Origin: Acidobacteriota bacterium
Lineage (GTDB): Bacteria > Acidobacteriota > Terriglobia > Terriglobales > Acidobacteriaceae
Reading direction: 5' to 3'
DNA: 37,086 nt
Assembly: GCA_003225075.1 (NCBI GenBank)
Contig: QIAP01000059.1
Coordinates: 1-37,086 of the forward strand
Each line of letters opens with the position of its first letter. Within the stretch, counting starts at the first letter, position 1. Below are positions 1 through 13,010 of this stretch, in pieces. The translations under genes were made by a program, and so were the position numbers. Below the pieces are notes generated by a model, which was not told the origin of the DNA, searched no databases, and saw only the letters and a list, made by a program, of their open reading frames with translations.

Positions 1-352
1 CACAGCGTGACATTCTAGTGCCCGGATGGCACGCGTTCCCTTCGTGCGCGATGGGGTGCATATTCGCTCATGAAGCTTAGGGGTTATGTTGGCTCTGGCT
101 GCGTCAGCTTATTACCCAGCTCGTCGATATGAACCTATGCATCCGGTTTAGATGACTCCGAACTCGTCGACCGGAAGAAATCCTGATTAACCTCCACTCA
201 ACGTGAGAGTCAAGGAAAGCGTCAGTGACGCTGCAGATCGACACTGTGTCGCATTGCGGGGCAGGGTGGATGTCAAGCTATCCGCGAAAAGGCAACTTTC
301 ACCTGCCATCGCATCCATTCGGTCTTTCTGATAGAAGTCTTTTCATTCCCAT
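1..352. other. Gene-free stretch at window start
   Basis: I see no convincing gene here on either strand. It lies downstream of the minus-strand terminase-like gene, where a large-terminase gene would be expected in a complete phage, and none is visible. The short frames that enter the stretch overlap the terminase-like gene in other frames and resemble no family. It could be decayed element DNA. Confidence 0.4.
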
Positions 353-802
353 CTATTCTGTCTCGTCGTTCGACATTCTTTGCTTGATGCGCGCGCTCAC
401 CTTGTCGCAGATCGCCGCGACTTCCATCGGCGGCATGTTGCGGAACTGGTCTCTCATTGCGTCGCTGTTGAGATTCTCCGTGTGGACTTCGACGGGTTTG
501 TCGCCCCATTCGTCATCATGCTTGCGAAGGAACTCGAACGCACGCGCCGGATCGGTCTTGACGCGAGAGATGTAGAGTTTCTTCGCAGCGCGCCGGGTAC
601 GACTCTTGCCGCGAAGCCAATCGTTATGAAAATTATTTAGAATCGTGCTGACACTACAGCCGCATTCGTCCGCAGTCTCTTGAAGAGTGTAATAATTCTG
701 CCCGCATTCAAAGACTTTTTGAGAATCTATCTCGAGACGCGGACGTCCTGGCCCACGCGATACTTTCTCACGACGCTTCTTGTAATCTTTGCGCTCAGCC
801 AT
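353..802 (-). CDS. Phage terminase small subunit-like HTH protein
   Basis: A 149-residue basic protein. The N-terminus carries an AT-hook-like GPGRPRLE stretch. It is followed at about residues 38-60 by a helix-turn-helix (YTLQETADECGCSVSTILNN). The second half has the pattern ARAFEFLRKHDDEWGDKPVE, which resembles the linker after the HTH in phage terminase small subunits, proteins that recognise packaging-site DNA. I start it at the ATG at 802 because AGGAG lies nine bases upstream; a TTG one codon earlier is also possible. No large terminase, portal or capsid gene is visible nearby, so it may be a phage remnant or an element-specific DNA-binding regulator. The family call is from pattern memory and is moderate. 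Confidence 0.6.
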   Translation of the reverse strand: MAERKDYKKRREKVSRGPGRPRLEIDSQKVFECGQNYYTLQETADECGCSVSTILNNFHNDWLRGKSRTRRAAKKLYISRVKTDPARAFEFLRKHDDEWGDKPVEVHTENLNSDAMRDQFRNMPPMEVAAICDKVSARIKQRMSNDETE

Positions 803-1128
803 CAATCCACACTCCTGCTGGACTTATAAATCCCCACTATGCCTTTGCGGGCGGTAACTTGTAAGTCCCGCCCGCCTTGGGTTGATTGAGTGTGTACCCA
901 CTGTCCCGGCAAGGACGACTTCCTCCACGTGGGAGAAACTTGTGACAATCGTTTCATTGCAACTTTCTCTCTAGCCATGACTTTCCCTTGCCCGTCCCTT
1001 GAGTGGTTGACTGATTGACTTGTGTACTCGGAACCAGATCGTGAGGACAGACCTGTTTTCCCAGACTAATATCCTGCGCACTACAGAGTAAGGAGCCGGT
1101 CCCAGTGTGTCGCCGACTTCAACGCTGG
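803..1128. other. Intergenic stretch between integrase and terminase-like gene
   Basis: About 325 bases with no supportable gene. It contains a GC-rich inverted repeat (847-875). It also contains two loosely similar segments, GATTGAGTGTGTAC near 884 and GATTGACTTGTGTAC near 1013, which differ by a small indel. Transcription of the integrase runs into this region, and transcription of the terminase-like gene would start at its left edge. Confidence 0.4.
847..875. repeat. GC-rich inverted repeat
   Basis: GCGGGCGG (847-854) and CCGCCCGC (868-875) are perfect complements separated by 13 bases. The loop contains a second short palindrome, ACTTGTAAGT. It lies 45 bases upstream of the terminase-like start and downstream of the integrase. 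It could be an operator or an RNA hairpin. No T-tract follows on either strand, so it is not a standard intrinsic terminator. Confidence 0.45.
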
Positions 1129-2406
1129 TCATACGTCGGCAAAATACACGATCTGAAAGCCGGTCGCGGCGTCTCGGGGGGCCCCATTAGCGTGGCACCA
1201 CTCAGCAAAATACCGACCGCGCCGGCTTGCATTTGGGCGATCGTAATCGCCCAGATTAAGCCAAAAAGGCACATGCGCGATCGTTCGCGTTAAGGTCTCA
1301 TTGACACGTCGAATCGGAGGAGGCAGTTTCTTCTGATCGACGATTTTTGCGTAAATCTCCGTCGTGCCAATGTGACGGTGTCCGAGTAGCTTTGAAAGCG
1401 TATAAACGTCTATACCGCTTGTGAGGCTCAATGTGGCAAACGTGTGCCGGCCACAGTGGAACGAAATTTTCTTAGTGATGCCAGCTTTCTTGACCCAACG
1501 CTGGAGTGCCTTGTCAGTAGTCTGCTGTGCACCGAGTTGGAAAACTAGATCGGGGTCAAGCGGAAACTTGCTGCGTGACACTGGCAGCGCTGGGGACAGT
1601 TGGTGTTTTAAAATGGCCACTGCTTGGGCGCACAGAGGCACCACAATCGGAGTTCCGGTTTTCGTTTGCCGAAATTCCAAAGCGTAAAGACCATTCAATT
1701 GCCGAACATGGCTTGCTCTAAGCGACTCTATGTCGGAATAGCGCAATCCCGAGAAGCAAGAAAACAGAAACGCCGCTTTCGTTTCTGCATTGCTGCATTT
1801 GGTATCGGCCAACTGCCGCAACTCGTCCAAGCTTAGGAAGGCCCTTTCCGTGGCCTGCTTCCTGATGGTTACGTTCACAGCCGGATTCTTTGTAAGGATG
1901 CCATCGTTCATCGCCTGCCGACAGGCAGTCTTGATCCGAGCCAAATAAACCGCAGCAGAATTGACGCCTATCCGGGCCAGGAGATATTCGTGAAATGCTT
2001 GCACGGTGGAGTGGTTGAGAGAGGAGAACGCCAAACGTCCGCCGCAGAACGTCGTAAAATGTTCGAGCGCTTTCCGCCAGACCTCTCGAGTATTGTGCGC
2101 GTGCTTGGTGTCCGCCAGTTTCCGACAATACTCGATGAAATCTGCCCGTTGGCGGGTGAGGGTTGCAAACCCGTGCTCATCACCTATCAGTTCCAGTGTC
2201 CGCTTGGAAGCGATCGCCTCTGCCACGCGGAATGTTTCCCGATCCGCGGCCCAGTTTCCCGTGAGATAGAGGTTCAAATATTCAAGCTGCCGCCGGCCGC
2301 GAGAGTAAAGGTCCAGATAGACGGTTTGCGTTTTACCGTCCCGCAGAAGGCGCGATCTGACCTTGATAGACAGAGCGAAGCAACAAATGTACAACAAAGT
2401 TTGCAC
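1129..2406 (-). CDS. Tyrosine recombinase / integrase
   Basis: Site-specific recombinase that cuts and rejoins DNA through a 3'-phosphotyrosyl intermediate. The N-terminus (about 12-55, SIKVRSRLLRDGK...YLDLYSRG) resembles the arm-type DNA-binding domain common in Bacteroidetes-type integrases. A SAM-like core-binding domain follows (about 80-170), then the catalytic domain. Visible catalytic residues are Arg222 (SGLRYSDIE), Lys249 (QTKTG), His317 and Arg320 (HCGRH), His343 (LGHRHIG) and Tyr352 (TTEIYAKI), so the enzyme looks intact. It carries about 73 residues after the tyrosine, more than usual. The annotated start is a GTG at 2406 with no clear ribosome binding site; in-frame TTG codons a few residues later are alternatives. 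A tRNA-like fragment lies about 105 bases upstream, the usual setting of an integrase beside its attachment site. Confidence 0.93.
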   Translation of the reverse strand: MQTLLYICCFALSIKVRSRLLRDGKTQTVYLDLYSRGRRQLEYLNLYLTGNWAADRETFRVAEAIASKRTLELIGDEHGFATLTRQRADFIEYCRKLADTKHAHNTREVWRKALEHFTTFCGGRLAFSSLNHSTVQAFHEYLLARIGVNSAAVYLARIKTACRQAMNDGILTKNPAVNVTIRKQATERAFLSLDELRQLADTKCSNAETKAAFLFSCFSGLRYSDIESLRASHVRQLNGLYALEFRQTKTGTPIVVPLCAQAVAILKHQLSPALPVSRSKFPLDPDLVFQLGAQQTTDKALQRWVKKAGITKKISFHCGRHTFATLSLTSGIDVYTLSKLLGHRHIGTTEIYAKIVDQKKLPPPIRRVNETLTRTIAHVPFWLNLGDYDRPNASRRGRYFAEWCHANGAPRDAATGFQIVYFADV

Positions 2407-2762
2407 AAAATGAGTAGCTTAAAACAGGAAAGAGCAGAAAATGTTGCGGATATGTTGTTGAAACTTAGCTTCTATTTGCGGGTGTTTCTTCTTGTTTACG
2501 GGAAAGGATTACTACCGCTGAACTACTCCCGCTCTACACTCGCTCTCGAGCCAACCACGGTAGATTAACATCCGCGCGAAGCTGGTTACAACCGCCGGCA
2601 GTTTCCTTGTCTAGAACATAACCATCACCCACCCTCTGCGTTTCGTTGAGCGACTCGGCGAAAAGCCTTGCGTCCAGTCTGTTTTCTCCTGCGGCAAACT
2701 GGTAGCATCTTGCGTCACGGATTTTGCTTCCTGACTTGAAAACATTCGAAGGAGAAACCAGC
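2407..2762. other. Intergenic region between integrase and amidase
   Basis: The stretch separates the divergently transcribed integrase and amidase genes. It probably marks the junction between element and chromosome. Its left half holds the tRNA-Gly 5'-end match (2512-2532, minus strand). The right half leads into the amidase and ends with its ribosome binding site (AAGGAG, about 2750). I see no riboswitch or other RNA gene. Confidence 0.4.
2512..2532 (-). tRNA. Truncated tRNA-Gly 5' end, possible attachment-site relic
   Basis: On the minus strand, from 2532 downward, the sequence reads GCGGGAG, TA, GTTC, AGCGGTAG. These are the acceptor 5' strand, positions 8-9, the D-stem 5' strand and the D-loop of a typical bacterial tRNA-Gly. 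The match then stops: the next bases are TAATCC, where a D-stem closing GAAC would be expected, and no anticodon or T-arm follows. It is therefore not a functional tRNA. Its place just upstream of an integrase suggests an attachment-site scar or element boundary. The tRNA assignment is from memory of canonical sequences, and a chance match of 21 bases cannot be fully excluded. Confidence 0.42.
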
Positions 2763-4442
2763 TTGAGCCCAAAGGATGGCGATCCAGTTTCCGGCCGTAG
2801 ACGGTTTTTGCAAGCCAGTTTCTTAACTGGAGTGGGCGCTGCCGTGTATCCCGTGCAGGTCGCGGGACGAGAGGTCGCACCGGCGCCGGCTGCTGTGCCG
2901 GAATCGTCCACATTTGAATTGAACGAGATCACAATTCGCGAACTACAGGACGGGATGAAGTCGGGCCGATTCACGGCGCGCTCGATTGCAGAACAATACC
3001 TGGCGCGAATTGAATCTATGGATCGGCCGGACAAGGATAAATCGGGCAACGATAGGCGGCGGCCGGCGGTGAACAGCTTGCTCGAACTGAATCCGGACGC
3101 GCTGGCGATTGCGGACGGACTCGACCAAGAACGCAAACAAAAAGGGCCGCGAGGTCCGCTGCATGGGATTCCAGTTCTGATTAAAGACAATCTCGATACG
3201 TCGGACAAGATGAATACCACGGCAGGTTCGCTGGCGCTGATGGGAGCAAGGCCGCCCAAGGATTCCTTTATGGCGCGAAAGCTACGCGAGGCGGGCGCAG
3301 TCATTTTGGGGAAGACCAATTTGAGCGAGTGGGCCAATATCCGGTCGAGCCACTCGACAAGCGGTTGGAGCGGGCGCGGTGGACAGACGAAGAATCCCTA
3401 CGTGCTAGATCGGAATCCTTGTGGCTCGAGTTCCGGATCGGGCGCGGCAGTTGCGGCGAACTTCTGCACGGTCGCGATTGGAACCGAGACCGACGGCTCG
3501 ATTGTATGTCCGTCGTCGGCCAATGGAATTGTTGGAATAAAGCCTACCGTGGGCCTGACCAGCCGCGCGGGGATCATTCCAATATCGCACAGCCAGGATG
3601 GTGCCGGACCCATGGCACGTACCGTCAGTGACGCAGCGATCTTGCTGGGCGCGCTCGCTGGTGTGGATCCCGACGACAGCGCAACCGCCGGGAGTCAGGG
3701 TAAATCCTATACCGATTACACTCGCTTTCTTGATCCCAACGGACTGAAGGGCACAAAGATTGGTGTGGTGCGAAAGTACTGTGGCTTTCACGATGGTGTG
3801 GACGCACTGATGAACACAGCAATCGAAGAGATGAAGAGGGCGGGCGCGACTGTTGTGGACCCGGCAGATATCGCGACGATCGGAAAATTTGATGAGTCCG
3901 AGTTGCTGGTGTTCTTATACGAACTAAAGGCCGACCTGAATAATTACCTGGCGCGGTTGGGGCCCGCTGCTCCGGTACACACCTTGAAGGACATCATTGA
4001 CTTCAACGAGCGGAACAAAGAGAAAGAGATGCCCTACTTCGGGCAAGACCTTTTTCTGAAAGCCGAGGCCAAGGGACCGCTGACAACCAAAGAGTATCTG
4101 GACGCGCTGGAAAAGAACCACCAACTTTCGCGTACACAGGGCATTGACGCGATCATGGATCAATTTCAATTGGATGCGTTGGTGGCGCCAACAGGTGGAC
4201 CAGCGTGGATCACGGACCTGGTGGATGGCGATCATTTTGCCGGTGGGAGTTCGAGTGCGGCGGCGGTGGCAGGGTATCCAAATATCAATGTGCCGGCGGG
4301 ATTCTTTTTTGGATTGCCGGTAGGGATCTCATTTTTTGGGCGAGCATGGAGCGAGCCCACCTTGATCAAGCTGGCATACTCATTTGAACAGGCGACGAAG
4401 TTTCGTAAGCCGCCGCAGTTTTTGCCTAGGGTGGAGGTGTAG
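2763..4442 (+). CDS. Tat-exported amidase (amidase signature family)
   Basis: A 559-residue hydrolase of the amidase signature family, which cleaves carboxamide bonds with a Ser-cisSer-Lys triad. The triad is visible: Lys141 (PVLIKDNLD), Ser222 (CGSSSGSG) and Ser246 (GTETDGSIVCPS). The N-terminus has a twin-arginine signal (RRRFLQ, then a hydrophobic stretch to about residue 35), so it should be exported folded to the periplasm. I place the start at a TTG (2763) because GGAG lies eight bases before it; the frame is also open further upstream from 2724. The substrate is unknown. Relatives include peptide amidases and cyclic-amide hydrolases, and the absence of GatB/GatC partners argues against a tRNA amidotransferase GatA role. 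It converges with the phosphoesterase gene. Confidence 0.92.
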   Translation: MSPKDGDPVSGRRRFLQASFLTGVGAAVYPVQVAGREVAPAPAAVPESSTFELNEITIRELQDGMKSGRFTARSIAEQYLARIESMDRPDKDKSGNDRRRPAVNSLLELNPDALAIADGLDQERKQKGPRGPLHGIPVLIKDNLDTSDKMNTTAGSLALMGARPPKDSFMARKLREAGAVILGKTNLSEWANIRSSHSTSGWSGRGGQTKNPYVLDRNPCGSSSGSGAAVAANFCTVAIGTETDGSIVCPSSANGIVGIKPTVGLTSRAGIIPISHSQDGAGPMARTVSDAAILLGALAGVDPDDSATAGSQGKSYTDYTRFLDPNGLKGTKIGVVRKYCGFHDGVDALMNTAIEEMKRAGATVVDPADIATIGKFDESELLVFLYELKADLNNYLARLGPAAPVHTLKDIIDFNERNKEKEMPYFGQDLFLKAEAKGPLTTKEYLDALEKNHQLSRTQGIDAIMDQFQLDALVAPTGGPAWITDLVDGDHFAGGSSSAAAVAGYPNINVPAGFFFGLPVGISFFGRAWSEPTLIKLAYSFEQATKFRKPPQFLPRVEV

Positions 4443-7819: not shown

Positions 7820-8701
7820 ATGCCGGTAGATCAAGAACATATCAAATCTGTGGTTGAGAAACTGAATCGCCAACTACCCAAGCTGGCAAGCAAGCCCCAG
7901 CCGAAGAATGTTCATCAGTTCCGCACCCACACCCGCCGCTTGGAGGCAGTGCTGGAAGAGGTCGCGCCGGAATTTGGCCGCAATGAGAAAAAGCTGTTGA
8001 AGCAATTGGCACGTTTGCGACGGAAAGCAGGACGAGTTCGCGATCTGGATGTTCAGGTGGCCGCGCTGCGCAGTCTGAAAATCCCACACGATGCGGGGCG
8101 AAAGACGCAATTGCTGCGCACGCTCGTCGAAACGCGGTCCAAGCGTGAACAAAAACTGGCTAAGGCGCTGGATAGTGCAACAGTCCGCGAACTGAAGCGA
8201 AGGCTGAAGCGTGCTGCGGCCGATTTGCGAATCCCGCATAACGTGGAGCCTTTAGTTTTGGCCACCCGCATGTTCGCGCGAGTCAATCATACACAGTCTC
8301 CGCTGAGCGAAAAGATTCTGCACGGCTATCGCATCGCAGGTAAACGAGTGCGATATGTGGCGGAGTTGGCGGGTAATGTTCCGGAAGCACAGCGCATGCT
8401 GGAAACGCTGAAGGTCATGCAGGATGCCCTTGGTAGTTGGCGGGACTGGCTCGTGCTGACGAAAACTGCCGAAAAGACATTTAGCGATGTCCCCGACTCC
8501 GCCCTGGTGTCGGCCCTGCGCAATGTGACCCGGGCAAAATTGCGCCAAGCGATGCAGGTCGTAACCAATACCCGAACCTTGCTGCTGTCCAGGCCGGTGG
8601 CGGCCGTTCGTTCCAGCGGATCGGCGGAGGCAGTTGGAATGGCGACGCACCGCAGACCTGCTGCGAGTTCTGCTGAGTTGCCAAGAGCTGCGAGCGCGTA
8701 A
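7820..8701 (+). CDS. CHAD domain protein
   Basis: A 293-residue, strongly basic, all-helical protein. The CHAD domain (conserved histidine alpha-helical domain) fills about residues 10-260. Its characteristic motifs are visible: VHQFRTHTRRLEAVLE, RVRDLDVQ, GYRIAGKRVRYVAEL and MQDALGSWRDW. CHAD proteins bind inorganic polyphosphate through conserved His, Arg and Lys residues and often localise to polyphosphate granules. The position 128 bases upstream of a Ppx/GppA gene, and next to ppk, supports a polyphosphate role. The N-terminal CYTH catalytic domain found in some CHAD proteins is absent, so it is probably a binding protein and not an enzyme. The C-terminal 30 residues are low complexity. 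No signal peptide, so cytoplasmic. No clear ribosome binding site precedes the ATG. Confidence 0.9.
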   Translation: MPVDQEHIKSVVEKLNRQLPKLASKPQPKNVHQFRTHTRRLEAVLEEVAPEFGRNEKKLLKQLARLRRKAGRVRDLDVQVAALRSLKIPHDAGRKTQLLRTLVETRSKREQKLAKALDSATVRELKRRLKRAAADLRIPHNVEPLVLATRMFARVNHTQSPLSEKILHGYRIAGKRVRYVAELAGNVPEAQRMLETLKVMQDALGSWRDWLVLTKTAEKTFSDVPDSALVSALRNVTRAKLRQAMQVVTNTRTLLLSRPVAAVRSSGSAEAVGMATHRRPAASSAELPRAASA

Positions 8702-8828
8702 CGACTTCACGCGTTTGAAAGATTTCCCTTCGCCTCCAAAGTCTAACTGCGCGATGAGTGAAGGGCGACGGCAGAGAACTGCTTGTCAGCCGATCGCCCA
8801 TCTTCCTTGATAGCATGGGCCCTGACAC

Positions 8829-10361
8829 ATGCCGACGTTCGCTGCCATCGATATTGGATCCAATTCCGTCCGCTTGAAAATCGCACGCCTGAAAGGGTCC
8901 CGGCTTGAGCCCATTCACGAGGACCGAGAAGTAACCCGCTTGGGGGAATCGGTCTTCAAGGCTGGATTTCTCTCTCCCGAAGCGATGGCGGAGACCATAA
9001 AAGTGCTACGGCGTTTTCATCGCGCCGCGCAACGGCTGGCTGCCGATGTGGTGCGAGTCGTGGCGACCAGCGCTCTCCGCGACGCGCGAAATTCACAGGC
9101 ATTCTTGGAGTGGGTACGTTCCGCCACCGGATGGAAGGTGGAAATCATCTCGGGCCTGGAAGAAGCTCGCCTGATTCACCTGGGCTTGACTTCCATGGGG
9201 CGAGTGGGGGCTTCGCCGGTCCTGATGATTGATCTGGGCGGCGGCAGTTGCGAACTGACGATCTCAAAGGAAGGTCACATACGGGATACTGTGAGCTTGC
9301 CGCTGGGCGCGGTACGGTTGACCAATGAATTCTTACGTCATGATCCGCCGCGCAAAAGTGAGCTGAAAAGGTTACGCGGATTTGTGGAGCGAGAGGTATC
9401 GCGCGTGGCTGGCCGCGTGGTGGCGGCGCGAGTCAAAGTGGTAGTGGCGACGTCCGGTACTGCAGCGGCGCTGGCCGCGGTTGCAAACCATCTACAGAAA
9501 AACTCAGGCACCCGCCCAGCCGGAAGCGTGTCGCGACCGGTGATGAAACGCATTGCCAAGCTTATTTGCCGTCTTCCCATTGAGCAGCGGCGGAAGCTTG
9601 AGGGTATTGGCCCCCGGCGCGCCGAAATCATCGCCGCCGGGGCGCAAGTGTACGAGGAACTGCTCGAGCTTTGTCATCTACATGGATTCCGCTATTCGCC
9701 ACTCGGCTTGCGAGATGGCCTGTTGGCACAGATGGCCGCGGACTCTGATCACGGGACGCGTTCGGGAAAGCAGATCGAATCGGAACGCTGGGATTCGATT
9801 ACCAACGCGGTCCGGCATTATCGGGTAGAGATGGGGCACGCGCTGCAAGTGCGCGAGTCGGCAATGCAGTTGTTCAAGGCGCTGAAACCAGTCCACCGCC
9901 TGCCGCCGGAGTACGCGGAATGGCTTTCGGCAGCCGCGATGTTGTACGAAGTTGGCGACTACGTAAATCGGAGCGGACGCCACCGGCACACTTACTACAT
10001 TATTTCCAACTCGGAAATTCTGGGATATACGCCGGACCAGAGGAAAATCATCGCCTCGATCGCACGCTACTTGGGCAAGTCGCGACCAGTTCCCGGGACC
10101 GGGCCATTGAAAGTGTTGAATCCGGGCGATCAACAGTTGGTGCGCAAAGCTTCGCTGTTGTTGCGACTGGCCCGTGCGCTCAACCTGGGGCGTAGTCGCA
10201 CAGTTCAGAAGATCCGCATACAAATAAGCGATGGAGCGGTACGGCTAAGACTTCTGCCGCGCAAGAGAATGGGCGTGGATCTGGAGCTGTGGGCGATTGA
10301 AAAGGATCGAGGTTATTTCCGCGAAGTCTTCGGGCGGGAGCTTTCAGCCGCTGAAGTATAG
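8829..10361 (+). CDS. ppx: Exopolyphosphatase / pppGpp phosphatase (Ppx/GppA)
   Basis: A 510-residue cytoplasmic enzyme of the ASKHA fold. Ppx removes terminal phosphates from polyphosphate; GppA relatives hydrolyse pppGpp. The phosphate-binding motifs are clear: AAIDIGSNSVRLKIARL (about 5-21), VVATSALRDARN (about 77-88), ISGLEEARLIHLG and MIDLGGGSCELTIS (about 134-147). The C-terminal half (about 315-510) has an HD-like helical domain (AAMLYEVGDYVNRSGRHRHTYYII), as in E. coli Ppx. The setting beside CHAD and ppk favours polyphosphate hydrolysis, but sequence alone does not separate Ppx from GppA. Its last 49 bases overlap the end of the opposing sixA gene, so transcription through one could interfere with the other. 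Confidence 0.93.
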   Translation: MPTFAAIDIGSNSVRLKIARLKGSRLEPIHEDREVTRLGESVFKAGFLSPEAMAETIKVLRRFHRAAQRLAADVVRVVATSALRDARNSQAFLEWVRSATGWKVEIISGLEEARLIHLGLTSMGRVGASPVLMIDLGGGSCELTISKEGHIRDTVSLPLGAVRLTNEFLRHDPPRKSELKRLRGFVEREVSRVAGRVVAARVKVVVATSGTAAALAAVANHLQKNSGTRPAGSVSRPVMKRIAKLICRLPIEQRRKLEGIGPRRAEIIAAGAQVYEELLELCHLHGFRYSPLGLRDGLLAQMAADSDHGTRSGKQIESERWDSITNAVRHYRVEMGHALQVRESAMQLFKALKPVHRLPPEYAEWLSAAAMLYEVGDYVNRSGRHRHTYYIISNSEILGYTPDQRKIIASIARYLGKSRPVPGTGPLKVLNPGDQQLVRKASLLLRLARALNLGRSRTVQKIRIQISDGAVRLRLLPRKRMGVDLELWAIEKDRGYFREVFGRELSAAEV

Positions 10362-10843
10362 AGAGTACGCAGGATCTTGGGAGTCAAACACCATTGCAGC
10401 GCGGCACTGTTTCTCCGCGTCTCCACTTTGGCCACCGCTGCCTTTTTTAACTCGACTGCGGCTTCGCAACCGGTGTCACTGATGATGCGCCCGAGGAACT
10501 CGCTCAAATTGGGGTTATGTCCAACCAGCATGATGGATTCCTGTTTGGCGTACTTATCGAGGAGCTTGCGAAAATCGGAAAAGACACCCTCCGGTAGAAG
10601 AGCCGGCTCGATCTGTAACTTGCCTTCGTGACCGATCTCGTTGGCCACCAGGGATGCGGTTTGTGTGGCACGCTTCAAAGGACTGGAGATAATGGCGTCT
10701 ACTTGCACGTCCAACGCGGCCAAACCACGGCCTACATAGCCACACTGCTCGATACCCTCTTTGTCCAACGCGCGTTTCTCGTCTTTTTTGGGATCGGCGA
10801 TGTGCTGACCAGCATTGGCGTGGCGCAAAAAGTAAATAATCAT
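10313..10843 (-). CDS. sixA: Phosphohistidine phosphatase SixA
   Basis: A 176-residue histidine phosphatase (RHG superfamily). The catalytic motif is Arg7-His8 (FLRHANAG), with Arg58 (SSPLKRATQT) and His109 (VGHNPNLSEFLG) completing the phosphate pocket. E. coli SixA removes phosphate from phosphohistidine, for example on phosphotransferase-system proteins. Here it starts one base after the ppk stop codon, so the two are very likely co-transcribed and translationally coupled. This makes polyphosphate metabolism or the PPK1 phosphohistidine a possible target, which is inference. The C-terminal 25 residues are a Ser/Lys-rich tail. Its 3' end overlaps the convergent ppx gene by 49 bases. Confidence 0.92.
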   Translation of the reverse strand: MIIYFLRHANAGQHIADPKKDEKRALDKEGIEQCGYVGRGLAALDVQVDAIISSPLKRATQTASLVANEIGHEGKLQIEPALLPEGVFSDFRKLLDKYAKQESIMLVGHNPNLSEFLGRIISDTGCEAAVELKKAAVAKVETRRNSAALQWCLTPKILRTLYTSAAESSRPKTSRK

Positions 10844-10844
10844 C

Positions 10845-13010
10845 TCAACCTATTCGTTCCTTTCGGCGAAGCTTTGTCATGGGCAACGCCGCCGGCGAGG
10901 GGATAGTGTCCATTGCTTGCTTACCTTCCGCCAGTTCGATGAGAAATTCCTGCGCGTTGAATGCGGCCGCGCCAGTTGGCGGTTTTAGGTTGCGTTTTCC
11001 GCGTTGCGCCTTCCAGGCACGGACATAGGTACCATCTTCTTGCAGCACGCGAGCCTTCACATTGTCCGCCAGATAGGCGGCCAGAATCTCCTGTCGCACC
11101 CGCTCGCGAAAGAGCATGTCTCTTAGAGGAAACATTACTTCGACGCGCTCGTATAGATTGCGCGGCATCCAATCCGCGCTGCTCAAATAAACTTCGTCCT
11201 CGCCGCCGTTGGAGAAGTAAAAGATGCGGCTGTGCTCCAGGAAGCGGCCCACGATGCTCCGCACCCGGATGTTGTCGCTCACCCCCCGGACTCCAGGACG
11301 CAAGGCACACATACCGCGAACGATCAGATCAATTTCCACTCCAGCCTGGGAAGCGCGGTAAAGAGCCATGATGATGTTCTTATCAAGCAGTGCATTCATT
11401 TTGGCAACGATGCGGGCCGGCCGGTGGTGGCGGGCATGCTCCGCCTCGCGATCAATTAACCCCAGCGAATTTTCCGCCAGATCAAGCGGTGCGACCAGTA
11501 GAGGCGCATAGGTGGGATGCTCGGCGTAAGCAGTCAGGAAGCTGAATACATCATGGACGGCACCAGTGATCTCCGGATCGGCAGTAAGCAAGCTGAGATC
11601 GGTATAAATGCGGGCGGTGGCGCCATTGTAGTTTCCGGTGCCAAGGTGGGCATAGCGACGAGTCACACCGTCCGGGTCGCGCCGCACAAGAAGTGAGAGT
11701 TTGCAGTGAGTCTTCAACCCTACGAGGCCATGAAATACCTGTACGCCGGCATCCTCGAGGTCGCGGGACCAGCGGATATTCGAAGCTTCATCAAAACGGG
11801 CCTTCAGCTCAACCACGGCGGTCACCTCTTTTTTCTCCGCGGCACTGATCAGGGCCGGAACGATGAGTGAATGCTCGCTGGTGCGATAGAGCGTCTGCTT
11901 GATGGACAATACACGATCATCTTCGGCTGCCGCTTCGATGAAAGATACGACCGCATCGAAAGAGTCAAAGGGGTGATGCAACAACACATCGTGACGACGC
12001 AGCTCTTCGAACAAGTCTTTGGATTTGGAGGTCAGTCGCAATTCGCGGGGCACGAAGGGTTTGAACTTCAGCTCAGGGTGAGCAGTTTGTTCGTAGATAT
12101 TGAAAAGCCGGGAAAGATTGACTGGGCCGTTTACGGAGAAAACCTGCCAGGGTTCAAGCTCGAAAACGGTGCGCAGGCGGTCGATGATTTCGGGATCAGC
12201 ATCGGCCTCGATTTCAAGCCGCACCGCGTCTCCTTTGCGGCGATTGTGCAGCTCGGAACGCACCGACTCGAGCAGGCTGCGCGATTCTTCTTCTTGAAGA
12301 TAGAGGTTGCTGTTGCGGGTCACACGGAATGCAGCCGAGGAAACAATGTCATAACCGTGATACATACGAGAAGCGTGCCATGCGACCAGGTCGGCGAGGA
12401 AAATGAAATCGTCGGTTCCTTCTGAAGGCAGGCGCACCAAGCGGGGCAAGGCACGCGGAACCGTAACAACACCAGTGTAGGTGAGGGCCGAGCGACGGCG
12501 GCGGCGAAGCAGGAAGGCTACGCAAAGAGCTTTATTGATGACGCGAGGAAATGGGTGGGCCGGGTCAACCGTGACCGGGGTTAGAAGCGGATCGAGTTCC
12601 TTTTCACAATACTCCGCGATGAATTCGTTGGCCTTGCTGTCAAGTTCATGCAGGCCGAGTACGCGAATTCCTTTCTCTGCCAGCGCAGGTCGCAACTTCT
12701 CATTCCAGCAAAGGTACTGCTCTTCCACAAATTCATGCGTCTGACGATTCACCAGCTCGCGCTCTTCCAACAAGGTGAGGCCGTCAGGCCCGGCGTCCGT
12801 ATAACCGTCTTCCAGTTGTTGCACTAATCCTGCGACCCGGACCTCAAAAAACTCGTCCAAATTGCTGGCGCTGATAGAGAGGAACTTCACGCGCTCCAAT
12901 AGCGGATTCTGGTCATCTTGAGCTTCCTCGAGAACACGCCAGTCAAACGCCAGCCAGGAGGATTCACGATTAATGTAGTAACCGGGATCGTCAAGAGAAA
13001 TGCGGACCAT
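10845..13010 (-). CDS. ppk1: Polyphosphate kinase 1
   Basis: PPK1 reversibly transfers the terminal phosphate of ATP to a growing polyphosphate chain through an autophosphorylated histidine. At 721 residues it has the usual length. The N-terminal domain (YYINRESSWLAFDWRVLEEA) and head domain (DEFFEVRVAGL) are complete. The catalytic histidine is His435 in GLKTHCKL, and the second conserved one is His593 in FLEHSRIFYFSNGG. Other hallmarks are SIKQTLYRT (about 369-377), YAHLGTGNYN (about 453-462) and LIVRGMCALRPG. No residue appears missing. A small frameshifted gene ends three bases upstream, and sixA starts one base downstream, so all three probably form one operon. Confidence 0.97.
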   Translation of the reverse strand: MVRISLDDPGYYINRESSWLAFDWRVLEEAQDDQNPLLERVKFLSISASNLDEFFEVRVAGLVQQLEDGYTDAGPDGLTLLEERELVNRQTHEFVEEQYLCWNEKLRPALAEKGIRVLGLHELDSKANEFIAEYCEKELDPLLTPVTVDPAHPFPRVINKALCVAFLLRRRRRSALTYTGVVTVPRALPRLVRLPSEGTDDFIFLADLVAWHASRMYHGYDIVSSAAFRVTRNSNLYLQEEESRSLLESVRSELHNRRKGDAVRLEIEADADPEIIDRLRTVFELEPWQVFSVNGPVNLSRLFNIYEQTAHPELKFKPFVPRELRLTSKSKDLFEELRRHDVLLHHPFDSFDAVVSFIEAAAEDDRVLSIKQTLYRTSEHSLIVPALISAAEKKEVTAVVELKARFDEASNIRWSRDLEDAGVQVFHGLVGLKTHCKLSLLVRRDPDGVTRRYAHLGTGNYNGATARIYTDLSLLTADPEITGAVHDVFSFLTAYAEHPTYAPLLVAPLDLAENSLGLIDREAEHARHHRPARIVAKMNALLDKNIIMALYRASQAGVEIDLIVRGMCALRPGVRGVSDNIRVRSIVGRFLEHSRIFYFSNGGEDEVYLSSADWMPRNLYERVEVMFPLRDMLFRERVRQEILAAYLADNVKARVLQEDGTYVRAWKAQRGKRNLKPPTGAAAFNAQEFLIELAEGKQAMDTIPSPAALPMTKLRRKERIG

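What the first reader, a model, noticed from the sequence alone, without database searches (positions are those of the whole stretch)
2406..2560. tRNA-Gly 5' fragment directly beside the integrase start
The minus strand from 2532 has 21 bases that match a typical tRNA-Gly from its first base through the D-loop, then diverges completely. It sits about 105 bases upstream of an intact tyrosine recombinase. Integrases often use tRNA genes as attachment sites, so this may mark the right boundary of the element. It is a 5' fragment and most known sites leave a 3' fragment, which makes the geometry unusual: either the element integrates at the 5' side, or the fragment is a relic of an older event.
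Basis: partly seen in the sequence, partly recalled or inferred. Interest (0 to 1): 0.55.

Follow-up and report, generated by a model that had tools for sequence, protein, structure and literature searches.

The report
Mobile element in tRNA gene's 5' end
The short tRNA piece marks one end of a mobile DNA element that inserts into the front (5') part of a glycine tRNA gene and rebuilds the gene at its far end, away from the gene's own upstream control region; insertion from this side is known but uncommon.

Summary
Confirmed. The 21 bases at 2532..2512(-) are nt 1-21 of this genome's own tRNA-Gly(CCC). The only other exact copy in the assembly starts the intact gene at contig C29:136-210. Only 135 bp precede that gene on C29, and they carry the same 18-bp motif as the integrase end in the window. 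The nearest integrase relative (51%), in genome G203, shows the whole arrangement on one contig: 5' fragment, integrase, 10.56-kb satellite-like element, intact tRNA-Gly(CCC), with a direct repeat of exactly those 21 nt. The next relative (G258, 47%) has a 20-nt version. In 396 sampled phylum genomes the broken 21-mer occurs only in G000 and G203. Relatives without the element show tRNA-Gly(CCC) intact beside the same upstream gene. So the element most likely integrates at the 5' side and the fragment is its boundary, not a stray relic. The contig break between window and C29 is the main gap. 5'-side integration is known (159 of 3919 Islander islands); a shared block ending in the D arm, before the anticodon, is the unusual part.

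The parts
2512..2532 (-). Displaced 5' fragment of tRNA-Gly(CCC), nt 1-21: attachment junction (host nt 1-21, then element)
   Evidence: Exact match to C29:136-156; same 21-nt block in G203
1129..2406 (-). Tyrosine recombinase (integrase), open frame, reading away from the fragment; start uncertain
   Evidence: Pfam PF00589 and PF13102; alignment with G203 and G258 integrases
2380..2397 (-). 18-bp motif TTGTTGTACATTTGTTGC, candidate integrase arm-type site; repeated at C29:66-83 and at both ends of the G203 element
   Evidence: function inferred
1..2511 (.). Integrase-side end of the integrated element (incomplete; contig ends at 1)
   Evidence: Follows from the junction; GC 52-53% against 53-60% further right
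353..805 (-). ORF of 150 aa in the element end; no Pfam or PHROG match
2533..2723 (-). Native upstream region of tRNA-Gly(CCC), left behind with the fragment
   Evidence: Inferred from amidase-tRNA neighbourhood in G210 and by analogy with G203/G188
2724..4442 (+). Amidase gene, chromosomal flank of the empty site
   Evidence: PF01425 E 3.8e-92; homologue beside intact tRNA-Gly(CCC) in G210

Best explanation
The fragment is the attachment junction of an integrated mobile element. Its tyrosine recombinase recombines the element's attP, which carries a copy of tRNA nt 1-21, with the 5' part of the host tRNA-Gly(CCC) gene. Afterwards host nt 1-21 with the native upstream region sits beside the integrase (this window), and an intact gene is rebuilt at the other end (contig C29) from element-borne nt 1-21 plus host nt 22-75. 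Shown: the 21-nt repeat, the shared end motif, one complete example in G203, and uninterrupted sites in relatives. Inferred: that C29:1-135 is joined to the element whose integrase end is in the window; that strand exchange lies in the D arm, probably across the 7-bp D loop (about 0.75); that the rebuilt tRNA is transcribed from the element side; that the integrase is active.
For: The only other exact copy of the 21-mer in the assembly starts the only tRNA-Gly(CCC) found there. C29:1-135 and the window's integrase end share a motif (16 of 18; 40 shuffles reach at most 15, 40 random chromosomal stretches at most 13), 52 and 114 bp from the core, against 50 and 115 bp in G203. G203: 21-nt direct repeat 10,558 bp apart, the only exact direct repeat of 15 bp or more between the 900 bp upstream of the integrase and the 19-kb stretch, ending at an intact tRNA-Gly(CCC). 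G258 has a 20-nt fragment upstream of its integrase. Broken 21-mer in 2 of 396 phylum genomes, G000 and G203. Uninterrupted sites: G210 for the own flank; 9 of 14 other genomes of G203's family have the upstream gene and tRNA-Gly(CCC) on one contig and strand, 5 within about 0.5 kb.
Against: Window and C29 are not joined in the assembly, and a search with both contig ends found no linking contig. The middle of the own element was not found; a large-terminase search gave 0. The own empty site is one-sided and rests mainly on G210: of 11 relatives with the amidase, 2 have tRNA-Gly(CCC) on the same contig, 6 list it on another contig and 3 have none listed; same-genus G396 has no tRNA beside its amidase. 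No listed relative matches the C29 DNA between the tRNA and about position 1687. G258's intact tRNA-Gly(CCC) was not found, and its end motif is weak (3-4 mismatches, a level also reached in unrelated loci). Integrases at 36-43% identity show no tRNA-type repeat.
Confidence: 0.92

Rival explanations
1. The fragment is a relic of an older, unrelated event and the integrase beside it uses another site.
For: The window's element is incomplete and its other end lies on another contig; only the integrase end is seen directly.
Against: Two relatives have the same fragment at the same place relative to the integrase, and one is complete with an intact tRNA at the far end. The broken 21-mer occurs in 2 of 396 genomes, both with this integrase. 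The 21 nt show no decay.
Confidence: 0.04
2. 5'-side integration is right, but strand exchange is in the acceptor-stem part of the shared block (nt 1-9) and not in the D arm.
For: Exchange can lie anywhere in the shared 21-23 bp; no mismatch inside the block pins it.
Against: The block's outer limit is simply the gene start, needed to keep the tRNA sequence, whereas its inner limit falls at nt 20-21 in three elements. The D arm has a 4-bp inverted repeat around 7 bp (GTTC-AGCGGTA-GAAC here; ATTC-AGCGGTA-GAAT in G203), the form expected of a tyrosine recombinase core (argument by analogy).
Confidence: 0.25
3. The 21-nt match to tRNA-Gly is chance.
For: None found.
Against: Maximum of 14 nt in 50 resamplings, 0 of 100 shuffles, and recurrence beside related integrases.
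Confidence: 0.003

Closest known systems
tRNA-gene genomic islands with a 5' fragment (Islander database, PMC4383910; passages read)
   Same: Tyrosine integrase, intact tRNA gene at one end, displaced fragment at the other; 159 of 3919 listed islands have a 5' fragment
   Different: Islander sorts crossovers into anticodon loop, T loop and T/acceptor junction; here the shared block ends at nt 21, before the anticodon
pTN3-like archaeal integrases (PMC5495485, PMC8371274; passages read)
   Same: 5' part of a tRNA gene is the site; the rebuilt gene is separated from its original promoter
   Different: pTN3 shares 41 bp including the anticodon and splits its integrase gene; here 21 bp and an undivided integrase. 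Archaeal, no sequence relation tested
Caldiarchaeum tRNA-Thr(GGU) 5' fragment beside a putative recombinase (PMC3293823; passages read)
   Same: 5' fragment of nt 1-27, limited to the acceptor and D-arm region, upstream of a full gene
   Different: 1.9-kb archaeal insertion in an intron-bearing tRNA; interpreted there as intron gain and gene splitting
PICI-type phage satellites (definition recalled; PMC10111431 seen only in a search listing)
   Same: The G203 relative is about 10.6 kb with integrase, HTH, primase-like, DUF3987 and terminase genes
   Different: No helper phage or packaging shown; cargo of the window's own element unknown

Membership tests
tRNA-integrated genomic island (Islander type) | Tyrosine integrase inside the island, near one end | tested here: met
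   (window); G203
tRNA-integrated genomic island (Islander type) | Intact tRNA gene and displaced fragment, same orientation, at the two ends | tested here: inconclusive
   Met on one contig in G203; for the window's element the two ends are on different contigs, C141 and C29
tRNA-integrated genomic island (Islander type) | 5' fragment lies on the upstream side of the intact gene, with the island between | tested here: met
   G203: fragment at 72900 and tRNA at 62342, both on the minus strand. In the window the order is inferred
tRNA-integrated genomic island (Islander type) | Crossover at anticodon loop, T loop or T/acceptor junction | tested here: not met
   The shared block is nt 1-21 and does not reach the anticodon at nt 33-35
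pTN3-like 5'-half integration | Site in the 5' part of a tRNA gene, with replacement of the upstream region | tested here: met
   the G203 fragment keeps the upstream region seen in G188, and the rebuilt gene has different upstream sequence
pTN3-like 5'-half integration | Shared block spans the anticodon and lies inside the integrase gene | tested here: not met
   21-nt block ending before the anticodon, 105 bp outside the called integrase ORF
PICI-like phage satellite (G203 element) | Small (about 10-15 kb) element with integrase, regulator, primase and terminase functions but no virion structural genes | tested here: inconclusive
   several small ORFs (83, 108, 123 aa) were not scanned, and not all others were scanned in both libraries
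PICI-like phage satellite (G203 element) | Mobilised by a helper phage | not testable with these tools
   Needs induction and packaging experiments

The most novel reading that the evidence does not exclude
A bacterial integrase subfamily uses a further tRNA sub-site, the D arm, from the 5' side. It recombines across the D loop, carries only tRNA nt 1-21 in attP, and places a host tRNA gene under element-supplied transcription, so that the host's tRNA-Gly(CCC) becomes dependent on a small, satellite-like element.
Probability: 0.5. Interest if true: 0.65.

Novelty: new variant of a known kind. Interest (0 to 1): 0.5.

Why it matters
5'-side integration swaps the tRNA gene's upstream region for the element's, which most tRNA-targeting elements avoid by rebuilding the 3' end. 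Three related integrases, one complete 10.56-kb example and uninterrupted sites make a small test system for two questions: whether the D arm is a genuine recombination sub-site in bacteria, and how the rebuilt tRNA is transcribed. The 21-nt signature is short and could be missed by island finders.

Tried and rejected
Rejected: chance match; stray relic; conventional 3'-fragment geometry (the fragment is nt 1-21).

G339, G105 and G360 (36-43%): about 1.1 kb upstream of each integrase searched against 33-60 kb for exact repeats of 15 bp or more; none for G339 and G360; G105 gave a 17-bp repeat 24.1 kb apart and short tandem repeats, with no tRNA gene in its stretches. L067 (49% over 73 residues, at a contig edge) could not be judged. 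For the other loci only a loose D-arm pattern was applied to up to 900 bp upstream; other tRNA genes were not tested there. Promoter scans: two overlapping candidates at C29:4-33 (mean 0.3 in shuffles), none in window 2200-2800, none in L129 4200-4800, so the source of transcription is open. Ten paper searches gave no bacterial D-arm case; four of them returned nothing. Williams 2002 was not held and is known here only from passages in other papers.

Full report
Observation. The minus strand from 2532 to 2512 reads GCGGGAGTAGTTCAGCGGTAG. ARAGORN finds no whole tRNA in the window. In the assembly (259 contigs) the 21-mer has one other exact copy, C29:136-156, the start of an intact tRNA-Gly with anticodon CCC at C29:136-210. 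The three matches with 3 mismatches are the GCC gene, the TCC gene and one site where ARAGORN sees no tRNA. Two bases before the block (GA) also match; the base after it differs. Resampled windows reach 14 nt at most, and 0 of 100 shuffles hold the pattern at up to 3 mismatches. The ORF 105 bp away, 1129-2406(-), is a tyrosine recombinase.

The other end. On C29 only 135 bp precede the intact gene. If the element entered the 5' part of this gene, those bases are the element's other end. They hold TTGTTGTACGGTTGTTGC at C29:66-83; the window's integrase end holds TTGTTGTACATTTGTTGC at 2380-2397(-); both read in the tRNA direction. The best 18-mer match between the two ends is 16 of 18; 40 resamplings reach at most 15 and 40 random chromosomal stretches at most 13. 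I noticed the motif by eye first, so that test is post hoc. The spacing is stronger: 114 bp (integrase side) and 52 bp (tRNA side) from the core here, 115 and 50 bp in G203. In G258 the motif is weak, 3-4 mismatches, a level that also turns up in unrelated loci. Such motifs resemble arm-type integrase sites (inference). A search with both contig ends found no linking contig, so the join remains inferred.

A complete relative. Of 396 genomes sampled from the phylum, 6 including the own one have an integrase match at E <= 1e-40. The two best others, G203 (52%; 51% by tblastn) and G258 (48%; 47%), have a 5' tRNA-Gly fragment about 210 bp upstream of the aligned integrase start. In G203 the fragment (C14:72900..72880, minus) and an intact tRNA-Gly(CCC) (C14:62342..62268, minus) lie on one contig. 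Between the 900 bp upstream of the integrase and the fetched 19 kb, the only exact direct repeat of 15 bp or more is those 21 nt, 10,558 bp apart. The interval encodes the integrase, an HTH_17 protein, a CHC2 primase-like protein, a DUF3987 protein, a terminase small-subunit-like protein (phrog_57, E 5.8e-25), a GpA-type large terminase (phrog_15, E 7e-239) and unknown ORFs. No virion structural protein appeared among those scanned; several small ORFs were not scanned. This suggests a phage satellite. The window's element need not carry the same cargo: the G203 large terminase has no match in the own genome.

Control. The 21-mer (R and Y at two positions) not followed by A, that is, not continuing as the tRNA, occurs in 2 of 396 phylum genomes, G000 and G203, once each, at the places described; the reversed-pattern control shows 0 for both. 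G258's fragment ends one base earlier and escapes this pattern. So 3 of 3 integrases at 47% identity or more with a readable upstream region (own, G203, G258) have the fragment; L067, a 73-residue match at a contig edge, could not be judged. G339, G105 and G360 (36-43%) show no tRNA-type repeat.

Uninterrupted sites. Own side: in same-family G210 the amidase homologue (68% protein identity; alignment from residue 25) begins 200 bp from an intact tRNA-Gly(CCC), in the same divergent arrangement as amidase and fragment here (ORF start 191 bp from the fragment). In G084 the two are 2.9 kb apart. Of 11 relatives with an amidase DNA match, these 2 have both on one contig; 6 list tRNA-Gly(CCC) on another contig and 3 have none listed (the list is truncated); same-genus G396 has no tRNA beside its amidase. 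No listed relative matches C29 between the tRNA and about position 1687, so the own empty site is one-sided. G203 side: of the 14 other genomes searched in its family, 9 have the upstream gene (SIS/CBS sugar-phosphate isomerase-like, named by recall) and tRNA-Gly(CCC) on one contig and strand, 5 of them within about 0.5 kb (G330, G188, G250, G196, G037) (full tRNA sequences printed for 7 loci). In G188 the match is 87% over 147 bp, 72 of them upstream of the tRNA. G203's fragment keeps that upstream region with a promoter-like TTGACT-18 bp-TAGTAT (read by eye), while G203's intact gene has different upstream sequence.

Mechanism. attP carries tRNA nt 1-21. Recombination leaves host nt 1-21 and the native upstream region at the integrase end, and builds element nt 1-21 plus host nt 22-75 at the other. 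The outer limit of the shared block is the gene start, as needed to keep the tRNA sequence. Its inner limit is nt 21 in two elements and nt 20 in the third. The D arm (GTTC-AGCGGTA-GAAC here; ATTC-AGCGGTA-GAAT in G203) has the inverted-repeat-around-7-bp form of tyrosine recombinase cores, so exchange is most likely across the D loop (inference, about 0.75). The rebuilt gene must then be transcribed from the element side or beyond; promoter scans gave two overlapping candidates at C29:4-33 (0.3 expected) and none in L129 4200-4800, so this is unproven.

Comparison. Islander lists 159 islands with 5' fragments among 3919 and sorts crossovers into anticodon loop, T loop and T/acceptor junction (PMC4383910, passages). 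Archaeal pTN3-like integrases use the 5' half of a tRNA gene; pTN3 shares 41 bp of tRNA-Leu including the anticodon, and the rebuilt gene is separated from its original promoter; a review says this situation is seldom encountered in bacteria (PMC5495485, PMC8371274, passages). A Caldiarchaeum tRNA-Thr 5' fragment of nt 1-27 near a putative recombinase is the nearest D-arm-limited precedent found (PMC3293823, passages). I therefore call this a new variant of a known kind. My ten paper searches gave no bacterial D-arm case, but they cover open-licence papers only, and the key 2002 survey could not be read.

Verdict. The relic reading is unlikely.

Noticed in passing
G203:C14:41686-41730 (-); L129 3914-4225 (+): A 45-nt 3' fragment (nt 31-75, 91%) of the same tRNA-Gly(CCC) lies about 20.5 kb on the 3' side of the intact gene, and an ORF that looks by eye like an integrase C-terminus sits just 3' of the gene. 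The tRNA may carry elements on both sides.
   Followed up: partly
window 63-113: 90% identical to G000:C136:4992-5041(-), a contig that also holds an integrase-like match at 10915-11418; possibly a second, distantly related element in the genome.
   Followed up: no
window 2380-2406: The called integrase start overlaps the 18-bp end motif, and the homologous starts lie 11 residues further in; integrase binding there might regulate its own gene.
   Followed up: no
window 7820-13010: Neighbouring ORFs that look like CHAD-domain, Ppx/GppA, SixA and polyphosphate kinase genes (named by eye), a polyphosphate-type cluster on the chromosomal side.
   Followed up: no
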